From: Oligoflexia bacterium
GTDB taxonomy: Bacteria; Bdellovibrionota; Bdellovibrionia; JABDDW01
Reading direction: 5' to 3'
NCBI GenBank assembly: GCA_020847095.1
Contig: JADLCR010000059.1
Span: forward strand, 1-35,657
DNA: 35,657 nucleotides
Of this stretch, positions 11,233 to 20,940 are shown piece after piece (position 1 is the first letter of the stretch; the number at the start of each line of letters is the position of its first letter). Made by a program: the position numbers and the translations under genes. Below the pieces are notes generated by a model. That model ran no database searches. It was not told where the DNA came from and was given only the letters and a program-made list of their open reading frames with translations.

Positions 11233-11607
11233 ATGTCATTAACTATGAGTGAAGATTATATTGTTTATATGGGCCAGCAATGGCTGACAGTTGAAGGTGA
11301 CATCGTCACCATCGGTGTCATGGAAGAGGCTATTTCTGAACTTGAAGAGCTCACCAAGGTCGATCTTCCCGGAGAAAACGAACCGGTCGAAAAAGATGAA
11401 ATTTGTGGGGAGCTTGAAACTCGAGATGGGAATTTGAATATCTATGCTCCCGTAGAGGGGACCGTCCTTGAAGTTAACTCGGCCGTTGCCGCAAATCCCG
11501 AACTCATTCGGGAAGACCCCTTTGGCGAGGGTTGGATATTAAAAATTGAAGCCGCCAATCAAGATGACGTGAAGGAATTAACTGCCGGTGCGTCTTACGA
11601 AAATTAG
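11233..11607 (+). CDS. GcvH-like (lipoyl-domain) protein lacking the lipoyl lysine
   Basis: Protein of 124 residues with the fold of the glycine-cleavage H protein. Recognisable blocks are WLTVEGDIVTIGVMEEAISEL (18-38), VDLPGENEPV, NIYAPVEGTVLEVN (69-82) and NPELIREDPFGEGWILKI (88-105). In normal H proteins the block before the YAP turn is GEVESVKAVSEVYAP, with the lysine lipoylated. Here it reads GELETRDGNLNIYAP, so the modified lysine is replaced by Asp (D65). It therefore cannot carry lipoate at the usual site and is not a working glycine-cleavage shuttle. No gcvT or gcvP is adjacent. A second in-frame ATG lies four codons downstream. The next gene begins inside its last codons. Confidence 0.85.
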   Translation: MSLTMSEDYIVYMGQQWLTVEGDIVTIGVMEEAISELEELTKVDLPGENEPVEKDEICGELETRDGNLNIYAPVEGTVLEVNSAVAANPELIREDPFGEGWILKIEAANQDDVKELTAGASYEN

Positions 11608-12895
11608 TCTGATTCTTTTTACCCTGATTTTTAGTTTTTCAACTTCCTGGGCCGACGGACCTCAAGAGCTCAGAGCTCGAGTCGCTGGAACATCACAAAA
11701 AGAACCTTGCACAAAAAGTAAAACTGGCAAGATTTTAATGACTTTGCGCCAGTTTGCCCAAAATCCCGACCCAAAGGCCTCTGCAAGTCTTGCCAATCAG
11801 CTTTGTCGTATCTCACCAGATGGCCATGAACCTTGCCCCATTTCGCTCAATCAAGATCTTGTGATTGATTTGAAGACATCGGGAGAAAGGGTACCGCAGG
11901 TTATTCCCGTCATGGCCTGTGCCGCGGCCGTTGCCGAAGGAGCCATTAGACAAGAATTGCTTGAAGGACTAGCCGCTTTGTTTGATCGCCATCAAGGACG
12001 CTTTTTCAGCACCTGGGGAACATTGTCGCCCTGGCAAAAAAATCTAGCTCCCAAGTGGGAGGAATTTCTGATGACCACCGGAGATTTTGCCGCCGACGAC
12101 GCTAAGAAACTATTGGTTTTTGACAAACGGGCTCAAGTGCTTCAAACGGCTCCAAGCTGGGCCAATCAAGAAACTAAAATCGCCTTTCGCAATTTGCGAG
12201 AAACCGCAGATCAGATCAGATCTACTCAGTCGGCAAATGCCCTTTCTGGAGACTTGCAGCTGGTGAAAAGTCGCTTTTTTGAAATTGTCGGTGACAAGGC
12301 GATTCGGCTCTCTCAAGGAGATTCAAAACGACTAGCTCAAGTAGCTGAAGGGGTGGCCGCTGAAGTGGGCCTCAATTACAAATTTTATTTAAAATCAAGT
12401 CAGCGCGACTGGGTGCTCTGTTCGACTCGACCCGGACAACAAGACACTTGTAGCCCTCGAGCGATAACTTTCGGTCGAGCTGCTGACGACTGCAGCGAAT
12501 TTGGCTATGGCGCCGTATTGGCTCAAAGCCAAACAAGTTGGATTTTCCTGACCAACACTTCGCCTTTTAAAGTTGATATCAACGACTACTTTATTCCCAA
12601 AGGAGTTTGGCTCAAAAAATCTGATCACGTTGTGCGCAAGTGGAACACCCCAGAAGGGTTCGAAGCTCGAGCCATTTCTGAAGATTTGAGCATCTTGTAC
12701 ATGCAAGCTCCGATTAAATCCGCAGTCGGCCGAACACTCGCTACACTCACCTTACAAATTTCTCCCGTCGGCCCGATCTCGTTTATTGAAAAGATTCCTG
12801 ATCAAAAAATAATTACGCTCACAGCACCCTTTTCACAAAAACTAAAATCTAGGGACGGCGTTAACTTTAACCTGTCAAAAAACACTTGCCCCTAA
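11588..12895 (+). CDS. Large secreted protein of unknown function
   Basis: Exported protein of 435 residues. The start is a GTG at 11588 overlapping the preceding gene by 20 nt, with an AAGGA block upstream. Residues 1-22 (MRLTKISLILFTLIFSFSTSWA) form a clear signal peptide. About eight cysteines occur in the mature part (for example CTKSKT, QLCRISPDGHEPCP, VLCSTRPGQQDTC, NTCP), which suggests disulfide bonds. The N-terminal half appears helical and the C-terminal half beta-rich. No catalytic motif or family is recognised. It is followed by a beta-barrel gene with its own ribosome-binding site. Confidence 0.8.
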   Translation: MRLTKISLILFTLIFSFSTSWADGPQELRARVAGTSQKEPCTKSKTGKILMTLRQFAQNPDPKASASLANQLCRISPDGHEPCPISLNQDLVIDLKTSGERVPQVIPVMACAAAVAEGAIRQELLEGLAALFDRHQGRFFSTWGTLSPWQKNLAPKWEEFLMTTGDFAADDAKKLLVFDKRAQVLQTAPSWANQETKIAFRNLRETADQIRSTQSANALSGDLQLVKSRFFEIVGDKAIRLSQGDSKRLAQVAEGVAAEVGLNYKFYLKSSQRDWVLCSTRPGQQDTCSPRAITFGRAADDCSEFGYGAVLAQSQTSWIFLTNTSPFKVDINDYFIPKGVWLKKSDHVVRKWNTPEGFEARAISEDLSILYMQAPIKSAVGRTLATLTLQISPVGPISFIEKIPDQKIITLTAPFSQKLKSRDGVNFNLSKNTCP

Positions 12896-12944: not shown

Positions 12945-13646
12945 ATGAAAATGTTTTTAGCCACCATGCTTACTTTATTGGTTTCAAGTGCTCAGGCGGC
13001 CCCGTCTAGCAAAGCAGCCATAACTGACGGCCCGGGATCGAAAGCGTCTCAGATTGAGACAAACACTCCCAGTACGGCTTCAGAAGCCAAAATTTCTAGA
13101 ATGATTCCTCATGTGGGATTGCTTTTGTCATCTTATACCGGAATTGACGGCGCCGGCGCCGAAACAAAAACCGGTTTTGAAGTGGGCGCCCTTGTGGATC
13201 TTGGAAGACAGAAAACTGTCTTTGAAACTGGTGTTTTATACAGACAAATGGGTGCTTATTCAGTTGCGGCGATTGGGGGCGACACCATCAGCTCTGGAAT
13301 CGAAGCGGATTATTTAAGTGTTCCACTCAATGCCAAATATTATGTTCATGGACAAAATCAAACATCTCTTGTGCTCAAGGGTGGAATTGCGCCAAGCTAT
13401 TTGATTTCTCAGCGCGCCAAATCTTCGAATATGAATGGTCTATCGGGCTCAACCGAAGACACCCGATTGAGCCGTTTTGATCTGGGCCTCATTATGGGCG
13501 TGGGCGGTCGACTTCTCACCGGCGAAAAATCTTCGTTGCTTTTGGAAGCCACCTACTATCGTGGTCTCACTAACGCTTTTGAAACCACCAATAATGCCTA
13601 TAATGCCGCGTTTGGATTTTCAGCCGGATTTGCTGTCGAAATGTAA
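12945..13646 (+). CDS. Outer-membrane beta-barrel protein (PorT-like)
   Basis: Probable outer-membrane protein of 233 residues. It has a signal peptide (MKMFLATMLTLLVSSAQA), a low-complexity Ser/Thr linker (20-50), then alternating amphipathic strands such as GFEVGALVDLG, VFETGVLYRQM, YLSVPLNAKYYV and SSLLLEATYYRGL, ending in a typical hydrophobic C-terminal strand (GFSAGFAVEM). The pattern fits the porin_2/PorT-like small barrel family with about eight strands. A GGAGG ribosome-binding site lies 7 nt before the ATG. A strong terminator follows. Confidence 0.8.
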   Translation: MKMFLATMLTLLVSSAQAAPSSKAAITDGPGSKASQIETNTPSTASEAKISRMIPHVGLLLSSYTGIDGAGAETKTGFEVGALVDLGRQKTVFETGVLYRQMGAYSVAAIGGDTISSGIEADYLSVPLNAKYYVHGQNQTSLVLKGGIAPSYLISQRAKSSNMNGLSGSTEDTRLSRFDLGLIMGVGGRLLTGEKSSLLLEATYYRGLTNAFETTNNAYNAAFGFSAGFAVEM

Positions 13647-13698
13647 ACAGCCCTCCGTCAGAATATTAGGCACTATTGATTTTATTTCATTGATCTGG

Positions 13699-13727
13699 GC
13701 CGCTCTTTCACCAAGGGCGGCTTTTTT
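13699..13727 (+). terminator. Rho-independent terminator
   Basis: A 9-bp stem (GCCGCTCTT / AAGGGCGGC, one T-G pair, loop TCACC) is followed by six T residues. It ends transcription of the beta-barrel gene and separates it from the ATP-grasp gene. Confidence 0.88.
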
Positions 13728-13756
13728 GCGCCCAGAGATTGCAACGCCTCAATACC

Positions 13757-15304
13757 ATGGGACCATTCATTGCTAGGTTAAGCGCGGCCATTGCCCTCAT
13801 TTGCTTTAGTCATGTTGGACGGGCCGCACGACAAATTATATTCCGGGCTCACTTAGAGGTAGCTACCCAGGAGCTTCGCTTTGACGAGACTTTAGACGGA
13901 GGCGCCAAAGAGCGCTACAAATCATTTATCGAAAAGCATGGAGTGGATCCTCTCAATCCTCAGACTGAGGTTGTAGAAGCCCTTCAACAAACCGGCCCTC
14001 TTGGCGACAACATTCGCGTCTTCCCTTATATGCTCGTTTTATCTAAAAGAGAGTACGAAGAAGTCATCCGAAAAGGCGCTGAACAAAGGGGGCGGGCATT
14101 AGCCAGGTTTTTTGAAGACATTATTTTAGGAAAGGGCCGCGCCCTATCACCAAAGGGTTTTATATCCGAAAAATCGCTGAACCGCATTTTTCATGATGAA
14201 GGTTGGACTATTGAGTCTGTCCGCGATTTGTGGAAAGGCGCCAGTAGCCGACAAATCTCATTTGTCTATGGCCCAGACTTGGTTAGGCGACCCGATGGCA
14301 AGTGGGTTGTTCTTGAAGACAATGTGGGACCTATCGGGGGCGTTGGAGACATCGATCAGGTTCAGAAAGCCCATTGGCAGGCTTTTAGCAACTCTGGCGC
14401 ACGACACATTCCCGCAGCCACAGAAGAATTCATCTCTGCAATCTCATTTCTAGCCCGCGCCCATGGCGTTTCTCCTAATCAAATACTTGCCATCACTGAT
14501 ATTTCTAAGGATCAAGATGCTGCCGTTAAAGAATCCCCAAGCTACAGAAAAACGATCGACATGGAAGATTATCGAAGACGGAAGTTTTTCGAAGACTTAG
14601 GATTGAAGATGGCTGAAAAAATTGACGGAGAAGCCCTCAGATTAGTTGAGAACTTTGCGTTAAGTTTTGTACTCAACTTTCACACGCTAGGCGACGCCCA
14701 TGACGTATATGAGCTTTACAGCCGCCACTTTGCGAAACAAGGAAAGTTTCTCTTAAATGCTCCGGCTACGGAAATTCTCTCAAACAAGGCATTGTTGCCT
14801 TATGTCGATCAGATGATCCGATTCTACCTTTCTGAAGAACCATTGCTTCCGAGCCAAGAAACCGAAGTCATTGACTCCAGATGGGCTGTCAGTCTTCCAG
14901 GAAAAGTAATTAAGAAAGCTAACGGTTCCCAAGGCAAAGATGTCATCATTTTAGACAACCAAATTGGTGGTGATTTCGATCGTATAGATAGATTTGTTCT
15001 CAATCAAAGAGCCTTTGACCGTATGCATCCGAGTCGGAGTTCAATTTGGGTCGTTCAGCCTTTTGTTCCAATGAGCACGATGGCTACTCCAATGGGTCGT
15101 TACACCGTTGACTTGCGTCCCCACACCTATGTCGCCAATCCCGATATGATTCACGTTTCATCGATTCCTTGGGGTCGGACTAGTCCGCTAAAAGGTTCTG
15201 GACTTAACAATGTTTCTCAAGGAGCTTACGAGCTTGCGGTTACGCTGTTTGACTGTGCGGCCGGAATGGATGCTTTGACCCTGTTGCCGGGAGGAAAGAA
15301 ATGA
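13757..15304 (+). CDS. Circularly permuted ATP-grasp protein with signal peptide
   Basis: Protein of 515 residues of the circularly permuted ATP-grasp type 2 family (enzymes that join a carboxylate to an amine using ATP). Signatures counted from the ATG are FVYGPDLVRRPDG (about 169-181), VVLEDN (184-189), a region like NAPATEILSNKALLPYVDQM (about 334-353), the glycine-rich ATP loop KKANGSQGKDVIIL (386-399) and VVQPFVPMSTMATP...DLRPHTYV (about 432-459). The start was taken as ATG 13757, because a TTG at 13739 only adds six residues. The N-terminus IARLSAAIALICFSHVGRA looks like a Sec signal peptide, which is odd for an ATP-using enzyme. Its stop overlaps the papain-like gene in ATGA. The substrate is unknown. 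Confidence 0.85.
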   Translation: MGPFIARLSAAIALICFSHVGRAARQIIFRAHLEVATQELRFDETLDGGAKERYKSFIEKHGVDPLNPQTEVVEALQQTGPLGDNIRVFPYMLVLSKREYEEVIRKGAEQRGRALARFFEDIILGKGRALSPKGFISEKSLNRIFHDEGWTIESVRDLWKGASSRQISFVYGPDLVRRPDGKWVVLEDNVGPIGGVGDIDQVQKAHWQAFSNSGARHIPAATEEFISAISFLARAHGVSPNQILAITDISKDQDAAVKESPSYRKTIDMEDYRRRKFFEDLGLKMAEKIDGEALRLVENFALSFVLNFHTLGDAHDVYELYSRHFAKQGKFLLNAPATEILSNKALLPYVDQMIRFYLSEEPLLPSQETEVIDSRWAVSLPGKVIKKANGSQGKDVIILDNQIGGDFDRIDRFVLNQRAFDRMHPSRSSIWVVQPFVPMSTMATPMGRYTVDLRPHTYVANPDMIHVSSIPWGRTSPLKGSGLNNVSQGAYELAVTLFDCAAGMDALTLLPGGKK

Positions 15305-16245
15305 AATTTCTAATCGTTTGGCTTGTTGTCTTATTTGTTCCTTTCTTCAGCAAAGCAAGTAGTTCTTGTTCAGAAATTCCTGCGATCGATTTAGGGAAAA
15401 TCAGAAATCAAGGCGATAAGGGTTGGTGTTTTGCCCATGCGGCCGCCGATCTCATTGGATACGCTTTTAAAGATGAGCTTCGTGGTCAGCAAGTTTCAGC
15501 GACCCACCTTGCCCTTAAATACGCCAGAAAATATTCTCCGTGGTCTCCTTATCAAGATGGTGGGTTTATTCGATTAGCCATTAGGCGAGGAACGCAAGAT
15601 GGCGTTTGCCTCGCCGACATGGACGATAGATTAATGAATGGGGGCCCATCAAGCGATCTATCAGCAAAACTAGATTACTTGGACGAACTTTGGAGTGCTC
15701 AAAACAAGAATGACTGGAAACGTTATGACGAGCTATTGCGTACAGCCATTTCCAAAGGCAGCATTTTATCCACCATTCCCCAAGCCACTTTGCTCCAAAC
15801 GCTTCGGCAAGCTTCTCGCGCACAAGCCGCCTCCCGCGTGGCCGATCTATTGTGTCGCCATAACGGGCAGTTTCAAGTTCTTCATAGGAAAATCAATAAG
15901 ACCAGTTACGTCACAAAAGCCACAATAGGTGGTAACGGAACTTTGTTTCACATCATTGATGGAGAACTGTCATTTCGCAACCCGGTGGGAATTGATTTTT
16001 ACTCGGCATTTCTAATGGAAGATACTCTCAAAAAAGATGGCCGCCATGCGGCTACCCTTATTGGAAGACGCACGAATCCCAAGACTGGCGAATGCGAATA
16101 CTTACTGCGCAACTCTTGGGGTGAATCTTGCGGGCTACGCGGATTTTTTTGCAACGAAGGTCGCTTTGACAAAGGTAATATCTGGGTACCTAAAGCCCTG
16201 CTGCAAAAGTTCATTTACGCGATGACGATTATCGAAAAGAAATAG
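15301..16245 (+). CDS. Papain-like (C1 family) cysteine peptidase, secreted
   Basis: Exported protein of 314 residues with a signal peptide (MKFLIVWLVVLFVPFFSKAS). The active-site region KIRNQGDKGWCFAHAAADLIG (33-53) matches the papain motif QGxCGSCWAFS, with C43 as nucleophile and Q37 as oxyanion residue. The catalytic His is H249 (GRHAATLIG) and the Asn is N271 in LLRNSWGESCG. The mature part has a longer helical insertion between the two halves (about 105-200) than papain. It overlaps the ATP-grasp gene by 4 nt, so the two are translationally coupled and probably act together. No propeptide is obvious. Confidence 0.87.
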   Translation: MKFLIVWLVVLFVPFFSKASSSCSEIPAIDLGKIRNQGDKGWCFAHAAADLIGYAFKDELRGQQVSATHLALKYARKYSPWSPYQDGGFIRLAIRRGTQDGVCLADMDDRLMNGGPSSDLSAKLDYLDELWSAQNKNDWKRYDELLRTAISKGSILSTIPQATLLQTLRQASRAQAASRVADLLCRHNGQFQVLHRKINKTSYVTKATIGGNGTLFHIIDGELSFRNPVGIDFYSAFLMEDTLKKDGRHAATLIGRRTNPKTGECEYLLRNSWGESCGLRGFFCNEGRFDKGNIWVPKALLQKFIYAMTIIEKK

Positions 16246-16250
16246 AAGAG

Positions 16251-17765
16251 CTATTTGCCTTCTGTAGCAAAGGCACTGACAACTTGTTGAGCGTTAGGGG
16301 CGTCATAGTTTTGCTCTTTCATTTCTGTGCCGTCCCAACGATAGATCTTACCTTGGCCTTCCATAACTGTCTTTAATGCCACAGGCCTTCCCCATAAAAC
16401 GGAAACGTTCTTCATGGTTTCACTCATGTAATTGGGCTGCAAATCGACACCTTCATATAGGTGTTCAAGCAAAAGCTCCCCGCGGTTTTCATAATTTCCG
16501 TCGACAACTTTAATGATGGGTTGCCCCCAATTGGTGAGTTGGAACAAAAGTTTCTGCTTAATCTCTGGAAATGCCCGCGTGTTGACTTCATACTGCCCCG
16601 TTCGTCTGTTGAAAACATAAACAAACATCTTGTTTTCTATGCAAAAGTCTTCGGTCAAAAAAGCATCGATAAACGTGACGTCGTTATAGTTGCGGCGTAC
16701 TTCAAATATTTTTTGGCGCCCAAGCCCGACATTCTTGTTCCAATTTTTCTTTTCCCGATAGTCGGTACAATCGTCGTATTCCTTACCGAACTTGCCCTTG
16801 TTCCACCGATCTTCAATATCCTTAAAAAGCTCGATACCCAATTTGTACGGGTTAAGCTTTCCTGGCTGAGTGGCTACTGTTCCACTATGATGATCGGCGT
16901 AGTCCACAACTTCCGAGTCCTTCAATATTTTCTCAGTCATTAGTTTTGAGTGCCAATACGACGCCCAACCTTCATTCATGATTTTGGTCATGCCTTGCGG
17001 AGAATAGTAATAGGCTTCCTCTCTAATAATGCCCAAAACATCGCGCTGCCAGGCGTTGAGTGGGGCAAACTCCATTAAAAACCAAAGAACATCTAGCTCA
17101 GGTTCGTTTGGAAACTTTTGACTTTTGGTTTTATCCAGATCCAGCTTCTTTTGTTGCTCATCAACAAAATCCTTTGGATTGATAAAAGAATCCATATATC
17201 CGCGTTCTGTTTTTAAAAGTCTCAATTGCGTCTCGTCCGCCAGAGAATCTCGTCGTCGCTTAATCGCGGTAGAGTGCCGGTCAATCAAGTTTTCAAGAGA
17301 AAGACAGCGGTCAATAAATTCTTCGACAACATCTTGGCCAAAACGATCAATGTAGCGTCTCACTCTCGAGGCGTGATTAGCCATCTCATCCATCATTTTG
17401 CGGTTGGTATGAGAAAAAAATTGATTGTTCTTGAAGAAGTCGCAGTGACCGTAAACGTGGGCCATCACAATTTTTTGATCGACAAGCTCATTGCTTTCTA
17501 AAAGGTAGGCATAGCAAGGATTGTTATTGATCACCATTTCATAGATTTTTGACAATCCATAAGCGTAACTCTTTGCTAGCCGCTCATACTCCATTCCAAA
17601 TCGCCAGTGGGGATAACGAGTCGGAAATCCGCCATAGGCGGCAATTTCGTTCATCTGATCGTAGTCAACCATTTCAAAAATGGTTTCATAGAAATCAAGC
17701 CCGTAGTCTTTGGCGTGCTTTTCAATACCCTGCTGAATTTTGGCCAGTTCCGGAGAAATATTCAT
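16251..17765 (-). CDS. spoVR: SpoVR family protein
   Basis: Cytoplasmic protein of 504 residues of the SpoVR/YcgB family. Signatures are [11 protein letters not shown] (51-61), [11 protein letters not shown] (82-92), [13 protein letters not shown] (102-114) and GWASYWHS. In Bacillus it affects the spore cortex. In non-sporulating proteobacteria it is co-expressed with the PrkA-type kinase and the DUF444 protein in stationary phase and nitrogen stress. Its ATG overlaps the yeaH stop by 4 nt, making a fully coupled three-gene operon. The biochemical role is not established. The gene ends 5 nt from the stop of the opposing papain gene. Confidence 0.96.
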
Positions 17766-18865
17766 TTTCCCTTGCCCAAAAAGTCTTTAATTGATTGATA
17801 AATGGCGTCGCGACTGTCGATGCGTGACAAAATCACTCGCTCATCTTGATTAAAGTCTTTTTCTAAATCCTTTATAAATTGGCCAGATCCGTATTTGCTT
17901 TCCACTTGCCCGTAACAAAACATGTTCACCAGCGGGAGCATGCGTTCTTTGAGAAGCTCTAAACAATACCGCGTGTCTTCACCGCTCCAATTGTCTCCGT
18001 CACTGAAGTGAAATGGATAAATGTTCCATTCAGAAATGGGATAATCTTCGTCTATGATTTTTTGAGCTAAGTTGTAGGCAGAACTAATCAGCGTTCCGCC
18101 GCTTTCGCGGGTTCTAAAAAATGTTTCTTCGTCGACCTCTCGTGCCGCTGCGTCGTGGATAATAAACCTCGTTTCGATTTCTTTGTACTGAGATTTAAGC
18201 CAAGTATGAATCCAGAACGTTTCAAGCCGAACAATTTCTTTTTGCTCGTCACCCATGGAGCCCGAGACGTCCATCATGTACATAATAACGGCATTGCTTT
18301 CTGGCTTCTCAGCATATTTATAACTGCGATAGCGCATGTCTTTTCTGACAGGAATGACCCGTGGATCATCTGGATTATAAGTCCCGCTTGAAATTTGCCG
18401 CTTGAGCGCTTCTTTATAGGTGGTTTTGAAGTGTCTCAAACTATCAGGGCCGACGTTGTGCAGACCCGTGTACTTTGTTTTGAGCGCTCGTATTTGCTTT
18501 GATCCGCGCGGTTCGATGCGCGGCAATTGCAATTCTTGACCTAAGATTTCGGCGAGTTCTTCAAAGGCGAGCTCAACTTCAAGCATGTGTTCGCCGGGCG
18601 CATTTCCCGCCTGGCCCGCACCGTCTTGGGGTTCGCCCTGTACAGGAGAGCCCTGATCGCCCTCCCCTTGCCCCACGCCTCCTGAGCTTTTTGGCCCGTA
18701 TTGAAAATGAGGTATCTCGATCTGAGGCATGGGAATAGTGACGAACTCTTTTTCCCGCTTTCCAATCATGTCGCTATTGGAAATAAATTTCTTAAAATTT
18801 GAACGGATCTTTCCCTTAACAATATCACGGAAGCGGTTATGGTCCTGCTTTATATTGAGGATCAT
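17762..18865 (-). CDS. yeaH: YeaH/YhbH family (DUF444) protein with vWA-type MIDAS motif
   Basis: DUF444 protein of 367 residues, somewhat shorter than E. coli YeaH. The order is a basic N-terminus, [11 protein letters not shown], a Gly/Gln-rich flexible segment (57-92), and a C-terminal von Willebrand A-like domain with the metal site DVSGSMG (199-205). Homologues are partners of the PrkA/YeaG kinase and act in stress adaptation. It overlaps prkA and spoVR by 4 nt each, so all three are made in one translational chain. Confidence 0.95.
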
Positions 18866-20940
18866 TTCGCCTTCACATCGCCCCTGGCAAAGATGCTTGC
18901 CACAAAGTTAAGTACATCACTCGAACAAATTTCACAGTAACCGTAATCCTTGATGAGCCTGCTCTTAACGATGTCGATCTTCTCTTGAGTGTTCTTATCA
19001 ACAACACTGGTCACCAAACTTGCGAGCTTGATAGAGTCTTTTTGATCTTCGAACAGCTTAAGCTCCAAGGCTTTGTGAAGTCGCTCATTGGTTTTATAAT
19101 CAAATTGTTTTCCATCAATGGCGAGTGCTCCGATGTAATTCATAATCTCTCTTCGAAAGTCATCTTTACGAGATTCAGGAATATCAATTTTTTCTTCGAT
19201 CGATCGCATCAACCGCTCATCTGGCTCTTCATCCTGACCCGTATACTTGTTTCGAACGCGCTCTTTTTGCGTGTAGGCCTTTATATTATCGATGTAATTG
19301 GAGCAAAGACGGGCAAGAGCGTTCTCGTCCGCGCTGATCGCCCTTTGAACCTCGCTCTTGACCATGTCTTCGTACTCTTGTTTCACAACAGCAAGCAGTT
19401 CTTTGTAAGACTTCTTTTTCTCGTCACCCACAATCAAGATGTGGTGCTTGAGTCCGCCCTCGAGTTCATTGAGAACCATGAAAGGATTCACGCAACCCGC
19501 CTCGCCGTGTTTTGAATTAACCAACGAGTTTGAGATTTTATCTTGAATATAACGGGGCGAGATTCCATCCAACCCCTCTCTTACCGCCTCTTTGCGAAGT
19601 TCTTTGACGTTATCTTCAGTGTAACCGGGCAATGTTTTACCGTCGTAAAGCTTGAGCTTTTGGAGTCGCGAGAGGTTTGCCTTCTTGGGCATTTCGAGCC
19701 TGGTGAGAATCGCCCACATTGCCGCCATTTCTAATGTATGGGGAGCAATGTGCTTTCCTTTAATACGCTTTTCATTGAAATCTTTTTTATAAATCTTGAT
19801 CTCTTCTTTGAGCTTAGTGATGTAGGGGACATCGATCTTGATCGTCCTATCTCTAAGCGCTTCCATAAATTCATTATTCTGAAGGCGTCGATATTCTGGT
19901 TCGTTAGTATGTCCGATTATGACTTCGTCAATATCGGTTTGAGCAAACTTCTTGGGTTTAATTTTATGCTCTTGAGAGGCGCCCAAAAGATCATACAAAA
20001 ACGAGACATCCAATTTTAGAACTTCAATAAATTCAATGACGCCGCGGTTAGCGATGTTAAATTCTCCATCAAAATTAAACGCTCGCGGGTCTGAATCAGA
20101 TCCGTACTCAGCAATGCGCCGATAGTTGATGTCTCCGGTTAGCTCAGTAGAGTCTTGATTCTTTTCATCTTTCGGTTGAAAGGTTCCGATACCAACTCGA
20201 TCGGCCTCACTCAACACCAAACGACGAACCTCAACGTGATCGAGAACCTTGTTGATATCTCCATGGTATTTTGTCATCAGCTCTTTAAAAATAAATCGGC
20301 AGGCCGGGCAAAGATCGCCCTCTACTTTGATTTTGTACTTTCCCTTGGTTCCACGGTTAAGTTCCTCTGAAACTTGATCTCTCACTTCTGTAGGAAAAAT
20401 TCGAAGTGGCTCTTCGTGCATGGGGCAAGGGAACTCTTCAATGCCTTTGCCCAGAACACCGTGCCTTGGGTTTTCTTTATCCGTCCAAACAAATGTATAA
20501 AGCGCTCCCTCTTGAGTGCGAGAATACTCTTCCATCCCGCGCTTTAAGAGTCGTGCAATAGTTGACTTAGAACTTCCAACCGGGCCGTGAAGCAAGATGA
20601 CCCTGCGCTCTGGTCCGTAACCCTCAGCTGCCGCCCGAAATGTTCCGACCAGCTTCATGAGCGAAATATCAAGGCCGAACACGGCATCTTTTCCACCGTT
20701 TCTTTCATCATCAAAGAATTTGTAATGAGTGATTTTCTTTTTAAACTCTGTGTACTCAGTGAATCCGTAACTCATAACCATGTCGTACAGCCGCTGAAAC
20801 GAAGTACGGCATATTTCGGGTCGCTCTTTTACCAGAGTGGCGTAATCGGAAAATGTTCCGCGCCAGTTGAGCTCACGAAACTTCTCGGTGGCTGTTAAGT
20901 TCGAAAGGATGTTTTGCAGATCGACTTGGTTTCGTGTCAT
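18862..20940 (-). CDS. prkA: PrkA/YeaG serine protein kinase
   Basis: Protein kinase of 692 residues with an N-terminal AAA-type domain (PrkA AAA) carrying the Walker A GPVGSSKS (119-126), cysteine pairs ([17 protein letters not shown]) typical of the family, and the C-terminal PrkA domain. It is about 50-60 residues longer than the Bacillus and E. coli proteins. Known members phosphorylate few identified substrates and respond to stress and nutrient limitation. A strong ribosome-binding site (AAGGGGG, about 8 nt from the ATG) and a perfect TATAAT lie upstream. It heads the prkA-yeaH-spoVR operon, which is well conserved in proteobacteria. Confidence 0.96.

What the first reader, a model, noticed from the sequence alone, without database searches (positions are those of the whole stretch)
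13757..16245. Coupled pair of an exported circularly permuted ATP-grasp protein and a papain-like peptidase
Seen: the ATP-grasp and papain genes overlap in ATGA, and each begins with a good signal peptide. Known: circularly permuted ATP-grasp enzymes use ATP to make peptide-like bonds and are normally cytoplasmic; C1 peptidases cut peptides. An ATP-using ligase that leaves the cytoplasm would lack ATP there, unless it enters a host or prey cell where ATP is available. Inference: the pair may build and cut a peptide or modify a wall or host peptide, possibly in a prey compartment.
Basis: partly seen in the sequence, partly recalled or inferred. Interest (0 to 1): 0.65.

Follow-up and report, generated by a model that had tools for sequence, protein, structure and literature searches.

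The report
Exported ATP-grasp ligase of Bdellovibrio relatives
The gene encodes an ATP-using, bond-making enzyme that appears to be sent out of the bacterial cell, and about 35 related genomes carry exported relatives with the ATP site intact, which is odd because there is normally little ATP outside cells; its protein-cutting neighbour gene is ordinary and is not a conserved partner.

Summary
In detail: a circularly permuted ATP-grasp gene (13757-15304 +) overlaps a papain-like gene (15301-16245 +) in ATGA, and both start with a signal peptide.

The inference of a coupled build-and-cut pair is not supported. Among 43 Bdellovibrionota genomes with an A1-profile match (369 searched), only one has this papain family nearby, beyond an opposite-strand gene.

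The export inference is supported and widens. The ATP-grasp belongs to a family in which 35 of 42 members, from several families of the phylum, carry N-terminal signal peptides, a few of them lipoprotein-type. The ATP/Mg residues are intact in 31 of 32 exported members. Exported members are almost free of cysteine (0.18%, against 0.8% in cytoplasmic cousins), yet 30 of 31 with complete C-termini keep one cysteine near the C-terminus. The model's best structural matches are a CP ATP-grasp protein, glutathione synthetases and nematode glutathione-synthetase-like effectors, which are secreted enzymes that work inside host cells.

I read this as a phylum-specific exported ATP-grasp ligase acting where ATP leaks from lysed or invaded cells. 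Export and active-site conservation are shown by sequence; substrate and ATP source are inferred. The presumed genus Bdellovibrio lacks the family, so it is not a core predation gene.

The parts
13757..15304 (+). Exported circularly permuted ATP-grasp protein, 515 aa (alternative TTG start 13739)
   Evidence: Pfam PF14403/PF04174; profile A3 hits 3n6x at 2.6e-52; AlphaFold pLDDT 82, Foldseek best hit 3n6x 3.9e-16
13757..13828 (+). Signal peptide MGPFIARLSAAIALICFSHVGRAA (approximate cleavage)
   Evidence: Hydrophobic h-region with AxA-like end; family-wide signal peptides upstream of the conserved core
14276..14341 (+). Mg/ATP motif GPD174..R177..E187-D-N189..GG195, equivalent to E. coli GspS D318, E330, N332
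   Evidence: Invariant in 31 of 32 exported members; GspS positions checked
14786..14788 (+). Conserved lysine K344 (ATP binding; equated with GspS K498 by analogy)
   Evidence: 32 of 32 exported members
14912..14935 (+). K386-x3-G390-x2-G393 nucleotide-binding lysine and loop (aligned with GspS around K533)
   Evidence: 32 of 32 exported members; weak local hhalign match to GspS
15110..15211 (+). D452, R454, R474, N485 of the C-terminal catalytic strands
   Evidence: Invariant in exported members, Bdellovibrionota cytoplasmic members with complete sequence, and COG2308-type proteins
15254..15256 (+). C500, the single cysteine of the mature protein, 16 residues from the C-terminus
   Evidence: Present near the C-terminus in 30 of 31 exported members with complete ends
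15301..15304 (+). ATGA stop/start overlap (translational coupling)
   Evidence: Sequence
15301..16245 (+). Exported papain-like (C1) cysteine peptidase, 314 aa, no propeptide
   Evidence: Pfam Peptidase_C1; catalytic Q37, C43, H249, N271 invariant in A4; model pLDDT 87, Foldseek to bleomycin hydrolases, Lpg2622 and Pd_dinase
15301..15360 (+). Signal peptide of the peptidase (MKFLIVWLVVLFVPFFSKAS)
   Evidence: Sequence; most A4 relatives with intact N-termini also begin with a hydrophobic signal
13697..13729 (+). Probable intrinsic terminator of the upstream outer-membrane-protein gene: 11-bp hairpin, loop of 5, then T-run
   Evidence: RNA fold -16.1 kcal/mol, z -2.2, 4 of 200 shuffles as good; suggests the pair is transcribed separately from 12945-13646. 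The consensus scan missed it

Best explanation
The ATP-grasp protein is a Sec-exported, catalytically competent amide- or peptide-bond-forming ligase of a family largely restricted to Bdellovibrionota. It folds outside the cytoplasm. Its lone C-terminal cysteine probably makes an intermolecular disulfide (homodimer or partner), since no second mature cysteine exists. It uses ATP set free outside the cytoplasm, most simply from lysed, invaded or neighbouring cells, to ligate an amino acid, peptide or polyamine-like amine to a carboxylate, perhaps in cell-wall peptides or a small thiol peptide. The papain-like gene is an exported C1 peptidase recruited next to it in this lineage and co-translated; it may trim the same substrates but is not a conserved partner. 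Shown by sequence: family membership, signal peptides across the family, conserved ATP/Mg residues, cysteine depletion with one retained C-terminal cysteine, and lack of pair conservation. Inferred: ATP use outside the cell, substrate, disulfide, and any prey role. Export of an intact enzyme about 0.85; ATP taken from other cells about 0.4.
For: Signal peptides in 35 of 42 family members across families f1, f2, f3, f8, f9, f10, f12, f26 and f27, with lipoboxes in f12 (clear in L124, L125). Catalytic set D174/E187/N189/K344/K386/Q434/D452/R454/R474/N485 intact in 31 of 32 exported members, while 6 of 7 cytoplasmic cousins have N189 changed to S. Mature Cys 0.18% (32 in 17,725), against 0.80% in cytoplasmic family members, 2.1% in COG2308-type proteins and 0.9% in other exported-like proteins of the same loci. 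Terminal Cys in 30 of 31 exported members. Tree: cytoplasmic members nested among exported ones, so export is old. Fold: 3n6x, glutathione synthetases, nematode GS-like effectors 5oet/5oeu, GspS. Precedent for a secreted ATP-binding GS-like enzyme acting in host cells: PMC5919673. Extracellular ATP occurs in many bacterial cultures: PMC3882102. Ruby and McCabe 1986, whose title reports an ATP transport system in Bdellovibrio, appears in the reference list of PMC4834554.
Against: No experiment on any member. The signal-peptide call is heuristic. ATP in the periplasm is normally scarce. The family is absent from genus g10 (probably Bdellovibrio), so it is not a core predation gene, and the lifestyle of most carriers (metagenome assemblies) is unknown. 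TLC-type ATP/ADP carriers were not found in the window genome and only as weak or partial matches in 3 of 54 tested. Export and terminal Cys are not separable on the tree: only 2-3 independent contrasts.
Confidence: 0.45

Rival explanations
1. The enzyme works in the producer's own periplasm or outer membrane, without prey, on low levels of leaked or released ATP or another phosphoryl donor, modifying cell-wall peptides or lipoproteins.
For: Lipoprotein-type signals in f12 would retain it in the own envelope; one member sits beside an L,D-transpeptidase; extracellular ATP has been measured in bacterial cultures; presumed Bdellovibrio lacks it.
Against: Neighbours vary and no wall gene recurs; periplasmic ATP is thought to be scarce (general knowledge).
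Confidence: 0.27
2. An exported binding protein: the ATP-grasp fold kept for binding a nucleotide or other ligand, with no ligation outside the cell.
For: One exported member (L093) has lost E187 and N189, so loss of catalysis can occur.
Against: All Mg/ATP residues are retained in 31 of 32 exported members over deep divergence; a mere binding role would not need the full Mg-ligand set.
Confidence: 0.15
3. The N-terminal stretch is an uncleaved membrane anchor and the catalytic domain stays in the cytoplasm.
For: In the window protein the h-region is short, the n-region carries a single arginine, and the cleavage site is imperfect; the AlphaFold model has one long helix over residues 2-38.
Against: AxA-type ends in most homologues and lipoboxes in some; near-absence of cysteine in exported but not cytoplasmic members.
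Confidence: 0.08
4. A dedicated two-enzyme build-and-cut system (as proposed by the first reader, and like the fused GspS synthetase/amidase): the papain-like enzyme hydrolyses what the ligase makes.
For: ATGA coupling and co-export; the E. coli glutathionylspermidine synthetase/amidase (gss) joins an ATP-grasp-fold synthetase and a papain-fold amidase in one protein (PMC10318531).
Against: The pair is not conserved in any other carrier; the papain family is common in genomes that lack the ligase (46 of 99 relatives carry papain relatives against 12 with the ligase).
Confidence: 0.1

Closest known systems
CP ATP-grasp type 2 / COG2308 (PF14403, PF04174; structure 3n6x), usually with alpha-E and transglutaminase-like genes (Anbu operon)
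   Same: Same fold and catalytic residues; profile match 2.6e-52 to 3n6x
   Different: Exported, one terminal cysteine, no alpha-E or transglutaminase neighbours; forms its own clade, well separated from COG2308-type proteins of the same phylum (L092, L139)
Nematode glutathione-synthetase-like effectors (Globodera GSS22, GSS30; 5oeu, 5oet; PMC5919673)
   Same: Same CP ATP-grasp / glutathione synthetase fold, gained signal peptide, ATP pocket conserved, enzyme acts away from the cell that makes it
   Different: Eukaryotic and derived from glutathione synthetase; delivered into plant cells by a stylet; only about 11-13% identity in the fold alignment
E. coli glutathionylspermidine synthetase/amidase (gss; 2io7, 2io8)
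   Same: ATP-grasp fold with D/E/N Mg ligands; joined to a papain-fold amidase
   Different: Cytoplasmic, fused, CHAP-type amidase rather than C1; no significant sequence match by hhalign
RloABC of Pseudomonas (PMC12239564)
   Same: ATP-grasp protein linked with secreted peptidases
   Different: There the ATP-grasp protein is cytoplasmic and RimK-like, and the secreted peptidase is a retropepsin
C7orf58/CPED1-type secreted TTL-like ATP-grasp of animals (PMC2824669)
   Same: Predicted secreted ATP-grasp amino-acid ligase
   Different: TTL type, fused to a PC-esterase, eukaryotic secretory pathway
Secreted C1 peptidases Lpg2622 (6a0n) and Pd_dinase (5wdk); bleomycin hydrolases
   Same: Closest solved folds of the papain-like neighbour
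   Different: About 10-13% identity; the Bdellovibrionota family has its own pattern of conserved cysteines

Membership tests
CP ATP-grasp type 2 (PF14403/PF04174) | Profile match above the curated cut-off | tested here: met
   74.1 bits vs 32, and 51.7 vs 23.1
CP ATP-grasp type 2 (PF14403/PF04174) | Conserved Mg/ATP residues (D, E-x-N, two Lys, C-terminal D/R/N) | tested here: met
   D174, E187, N189, K344, K386, D452, R454, R474, N485 present and family-wide
CP ATP-grasp type 2 (PF14403/PF04174) | ATP-dependent ligase activity | not testable with these tools
   No assay; for the Anbu-operon ATP-grasp only phosphate release from ATP is reported (PMC6376114)
COG2308 / Anbu peptide-modification system | Neighbouring alpha-E and transglutaminase-like genes | tested here: not met
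   Found beside classical members L092, L139 and L140, but not beside the exported family
Glutathionylspermidine synthetase/amidase | Fusion or homology with the GspS ATP-grasp and CHAP amidase | tested here: not met
   hhalign probability 0.4%; partner is C1, not CHAP; only fold-level similarity
Secreted GS-like effector (working analogy) | Signal peptide plus intact ATP pocket | tested here: met
Secreted GS-like effector (working analogy) | Delivery into another cell | not testable with these tools
   Would need localisation during predation or co-culture
Papain family C1 | Gln, Cys, His, Asn catalytic set | tested here: met
   Q37, C43, H249, N271 invariant in 24 sequences
Papain family C1 | Inhibitory propeptide | tested here: not met
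   Catalytic domain begins directly after the signal peptide
Conserved two-gene ligase/papain operon | Adjacency of the two genes in other genomes | tested here: not met
   Only G076 has a papain within 5 kb, with an opposite-strand gene between

The most novel reading that the evidence does not exclude
A bacterial family of exported ATP-grasp ligases that do ATP-driven bond formation outside the producing cell, inside lysed or invaded neighbours: a prokaryotic counterpart of nematode glutathione-synthetase-like effectors, dimerised or tethered through a lone C-terminal cysteine.
Probability: 0.33. Interest if true: 0.85.

Novelty: new variant of a known kind. Interest (0 to 1): 0.6.

Why it matters
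ATP-grasp ligases are textbook cytoplasmic enzymes. A deep, conserved exported family with the complete ATP site breaks that rule and asks where ATP comes from outside a bacterium. It gives a concrete, testable protein set for extracytoplasmic ATP use in Bdellovibrionota and perhaps for chemistry done in victim cells. I found no description of it in the open-access papers searched.

Tried and rejected
Coupled operon as a conserved system: rejected by neighbourhood comparison in 46 loci. Mis-called start creating a false signal peptide: rejected, no usable start between the hydrophobic stretch and the core. Degenerate pseudoenzyme: rejected for all but L093. A TLC ATP/ADP translocase as the ATP source: not found in the window genome, 3 weak or partial hits among 54 genomes. 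GspS homology by profile: none. dN/dS on close pairs failed from saturation. Single-protein scan of the species genome collection found nothing; an alignment of near relatives found 17 named loci. A phmmer hit to TALE Hax3 (4osk) is a repeat artefact. The formal independence test of export against terminal cysteine lacks power.

Full report
Observation. The two genes are as described. The ATP-grasp ORF runs 13757-15304 (ATG; TTG at 13739 also possible), matches PF14403 at 1.4e-20, and overlaps the papain-like ORF 15301-16245 in ATGA. Both begin with a hydrophobic signal. The genome holds one copy of each. An 11-bp hairpin followed by a T-run at 13697-13729 probably ends the upstream outer-membrane-protein gene, so the pair is likely its own transcription unit. 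The consensus scan did not flag this hairpin.

Family. A profile of 12 homologues (A1) found matches in 20 of 144 genomes of the class and 43 of 369 of the phylum. A near-relative profile (A2) found matches in 2 of 379 Myxococcota. A scan of the named species collection with A2 returned Bdellovibrionota-type metagenome assemblies plus Minicystis rosea. The family forms its own clade, well separated from the classical COG2308 proteins of the same phylum, which sit with alpha-E and transglutaminase genes (L092, L139, L140).

Export. I extracted every member with its possible starts. Thirty-five of 42 begin with a signal peptide upstream of the conserved [YF][DN]E core: 33 by a simple rule, two more by eye (L127, L093). 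L124 and L125 have clear lipoboxes; L119 and L126 are weaker. Seven (L051, L058, L133-L137) start at the core, as do the two myxococcal ones. The rule also% of other ORFs in the loci, so it is supporting evidence only. Independent support comes from cysteine. Exported members hold 32 Cys in 17,725 mature residues (0.18%), nearly all of them one conserved residue near the C-terminus. Cytoplasmic members have 0.80%, COG2308-type proteins 2.1%, and other exported-like proteins of the same loci 0.9%. Thirty of 31 exported members with complete ends keep the terminal cysteine, often in C-x-x-[LIM]-[FYI]. The tree places cytoplasmic members inside exported ones, so export is old. Because the states are clustered, the link between export and cysteine rests on only 2-3 independent contrasts.

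Active site. Window D174, E187 and N189 correspond by motif to GspS D318, E330 and N332 (GspS positions checked; their ligand roles are from my own knowledge). With K344, K386, Q434, D452, R454, R474 and N485 they are intact in 31 of 32 exported members. L093 has lost E187 and N189. Most cytoplasmic Bdellovibrionota members carry S at 189. Selection has therefore kept the ATP/Mg site in the exported proteins. The AlphaFold model (pLDDT 82) matches 3n6x, eukaryotic glutathione synthetases, the secreted Globodera GS-like effectors and GspS.

Papain-like gene. It belongs to an exported C1-like family common in the class: 46 of 99 relatives carry a match, against 12 with the ligase. The catalytic set is invariant and extra cysteines are conserved. 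The model matches bleomycin hydrolases, Lpg2622 and Pd_dinase. The only other genome with both genes near each other is G076, and there an opposite-strand gene lies between them. Neighbours of other members include an L,D-transpeptidase, a prolyl oligopeptidase, an LCAT-like hydrolase, a formylglycine-generating-enzyme-like protein and unknowns. The coupling is thus a lineage-specific arrangement.

Mechanism. I infer an exported ligase. Its ATP would come from outside the cytoplasm: bacterial cultures do hold extracellular ATP (PMC3882102), and a Bdellovibrio ATP transport system was reported (Ruby and McCabe 1986, seen only as a citation in PMC4834554). The nematode effectors show that such an enzyme can be sent out to work in another cell's cytoplasm (PMC5919673). 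Against a general predation role, every genome of genus g10 searched (more than 20, many of them single-contig, presumably Bdellovibrio but not verified by name) lacks it. TLC ATP/ADP carriers do not accompany it. The lone cysteine suggests an intermolecular disulfide, untested. Substrate is unknown; an amine plus a carboxylate is the class reaction.

Literature. No open-access paper found describes an exported bacterial ATP-grasp family. Related cases are cytoplasmic RloC with secreted RloA peptidases (PMC12239564), the Anbu operon (PMC6376114) and the predicted secreted animal TTL-like ATP-grasp (PMC2824669). The 2009 amidoligase survey by Iyer and colleagues was not held, so a mention there cannot be excluded.

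Verdict. Observation confirmed; pair interpretation not supported; exported-ligase inference supported and widened to a family. New variant of a known kind.

Noticed in passing
window 11233-11607 +: GcvH-like protein (PF01597, 1.8e-27) in which the usual lipoyl-lysine site (ESVK-like) reads ELETRDGN, apparently without the lysine; compared from memory only.
   Followed up: partly
window 16251-20940 -: SpoVR, DUF444 (YeaH-like) and PrkA genes as a compact operon with overlapping ends, running towards the papain gene.
   Followed up: partly
window 11588-12895 +: Exported 435-aa protein with no Pfam or NCBIfam match.
   Followed up: no
L093:6628-8169 (-): Divergent exported family member lacking E187 and N189 equivalents, a possible exported pseudoenzyme.
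   Followed up: partly
L116 and L137 (genome G327); L131 and L133 (genome G356): Two genomes carry both an exported and a cytoplasmic member of the same ATP-grasp family.
   Followed up: no
L056:8405-10600, L057:4488-6716, L089:8576-10996: In family f10 the exported ATP-grasp gene lies next to a homologous protein (prolyl oligopeptidase by Pfam in L056; lipoprotein signal there).
   Followed up: partly
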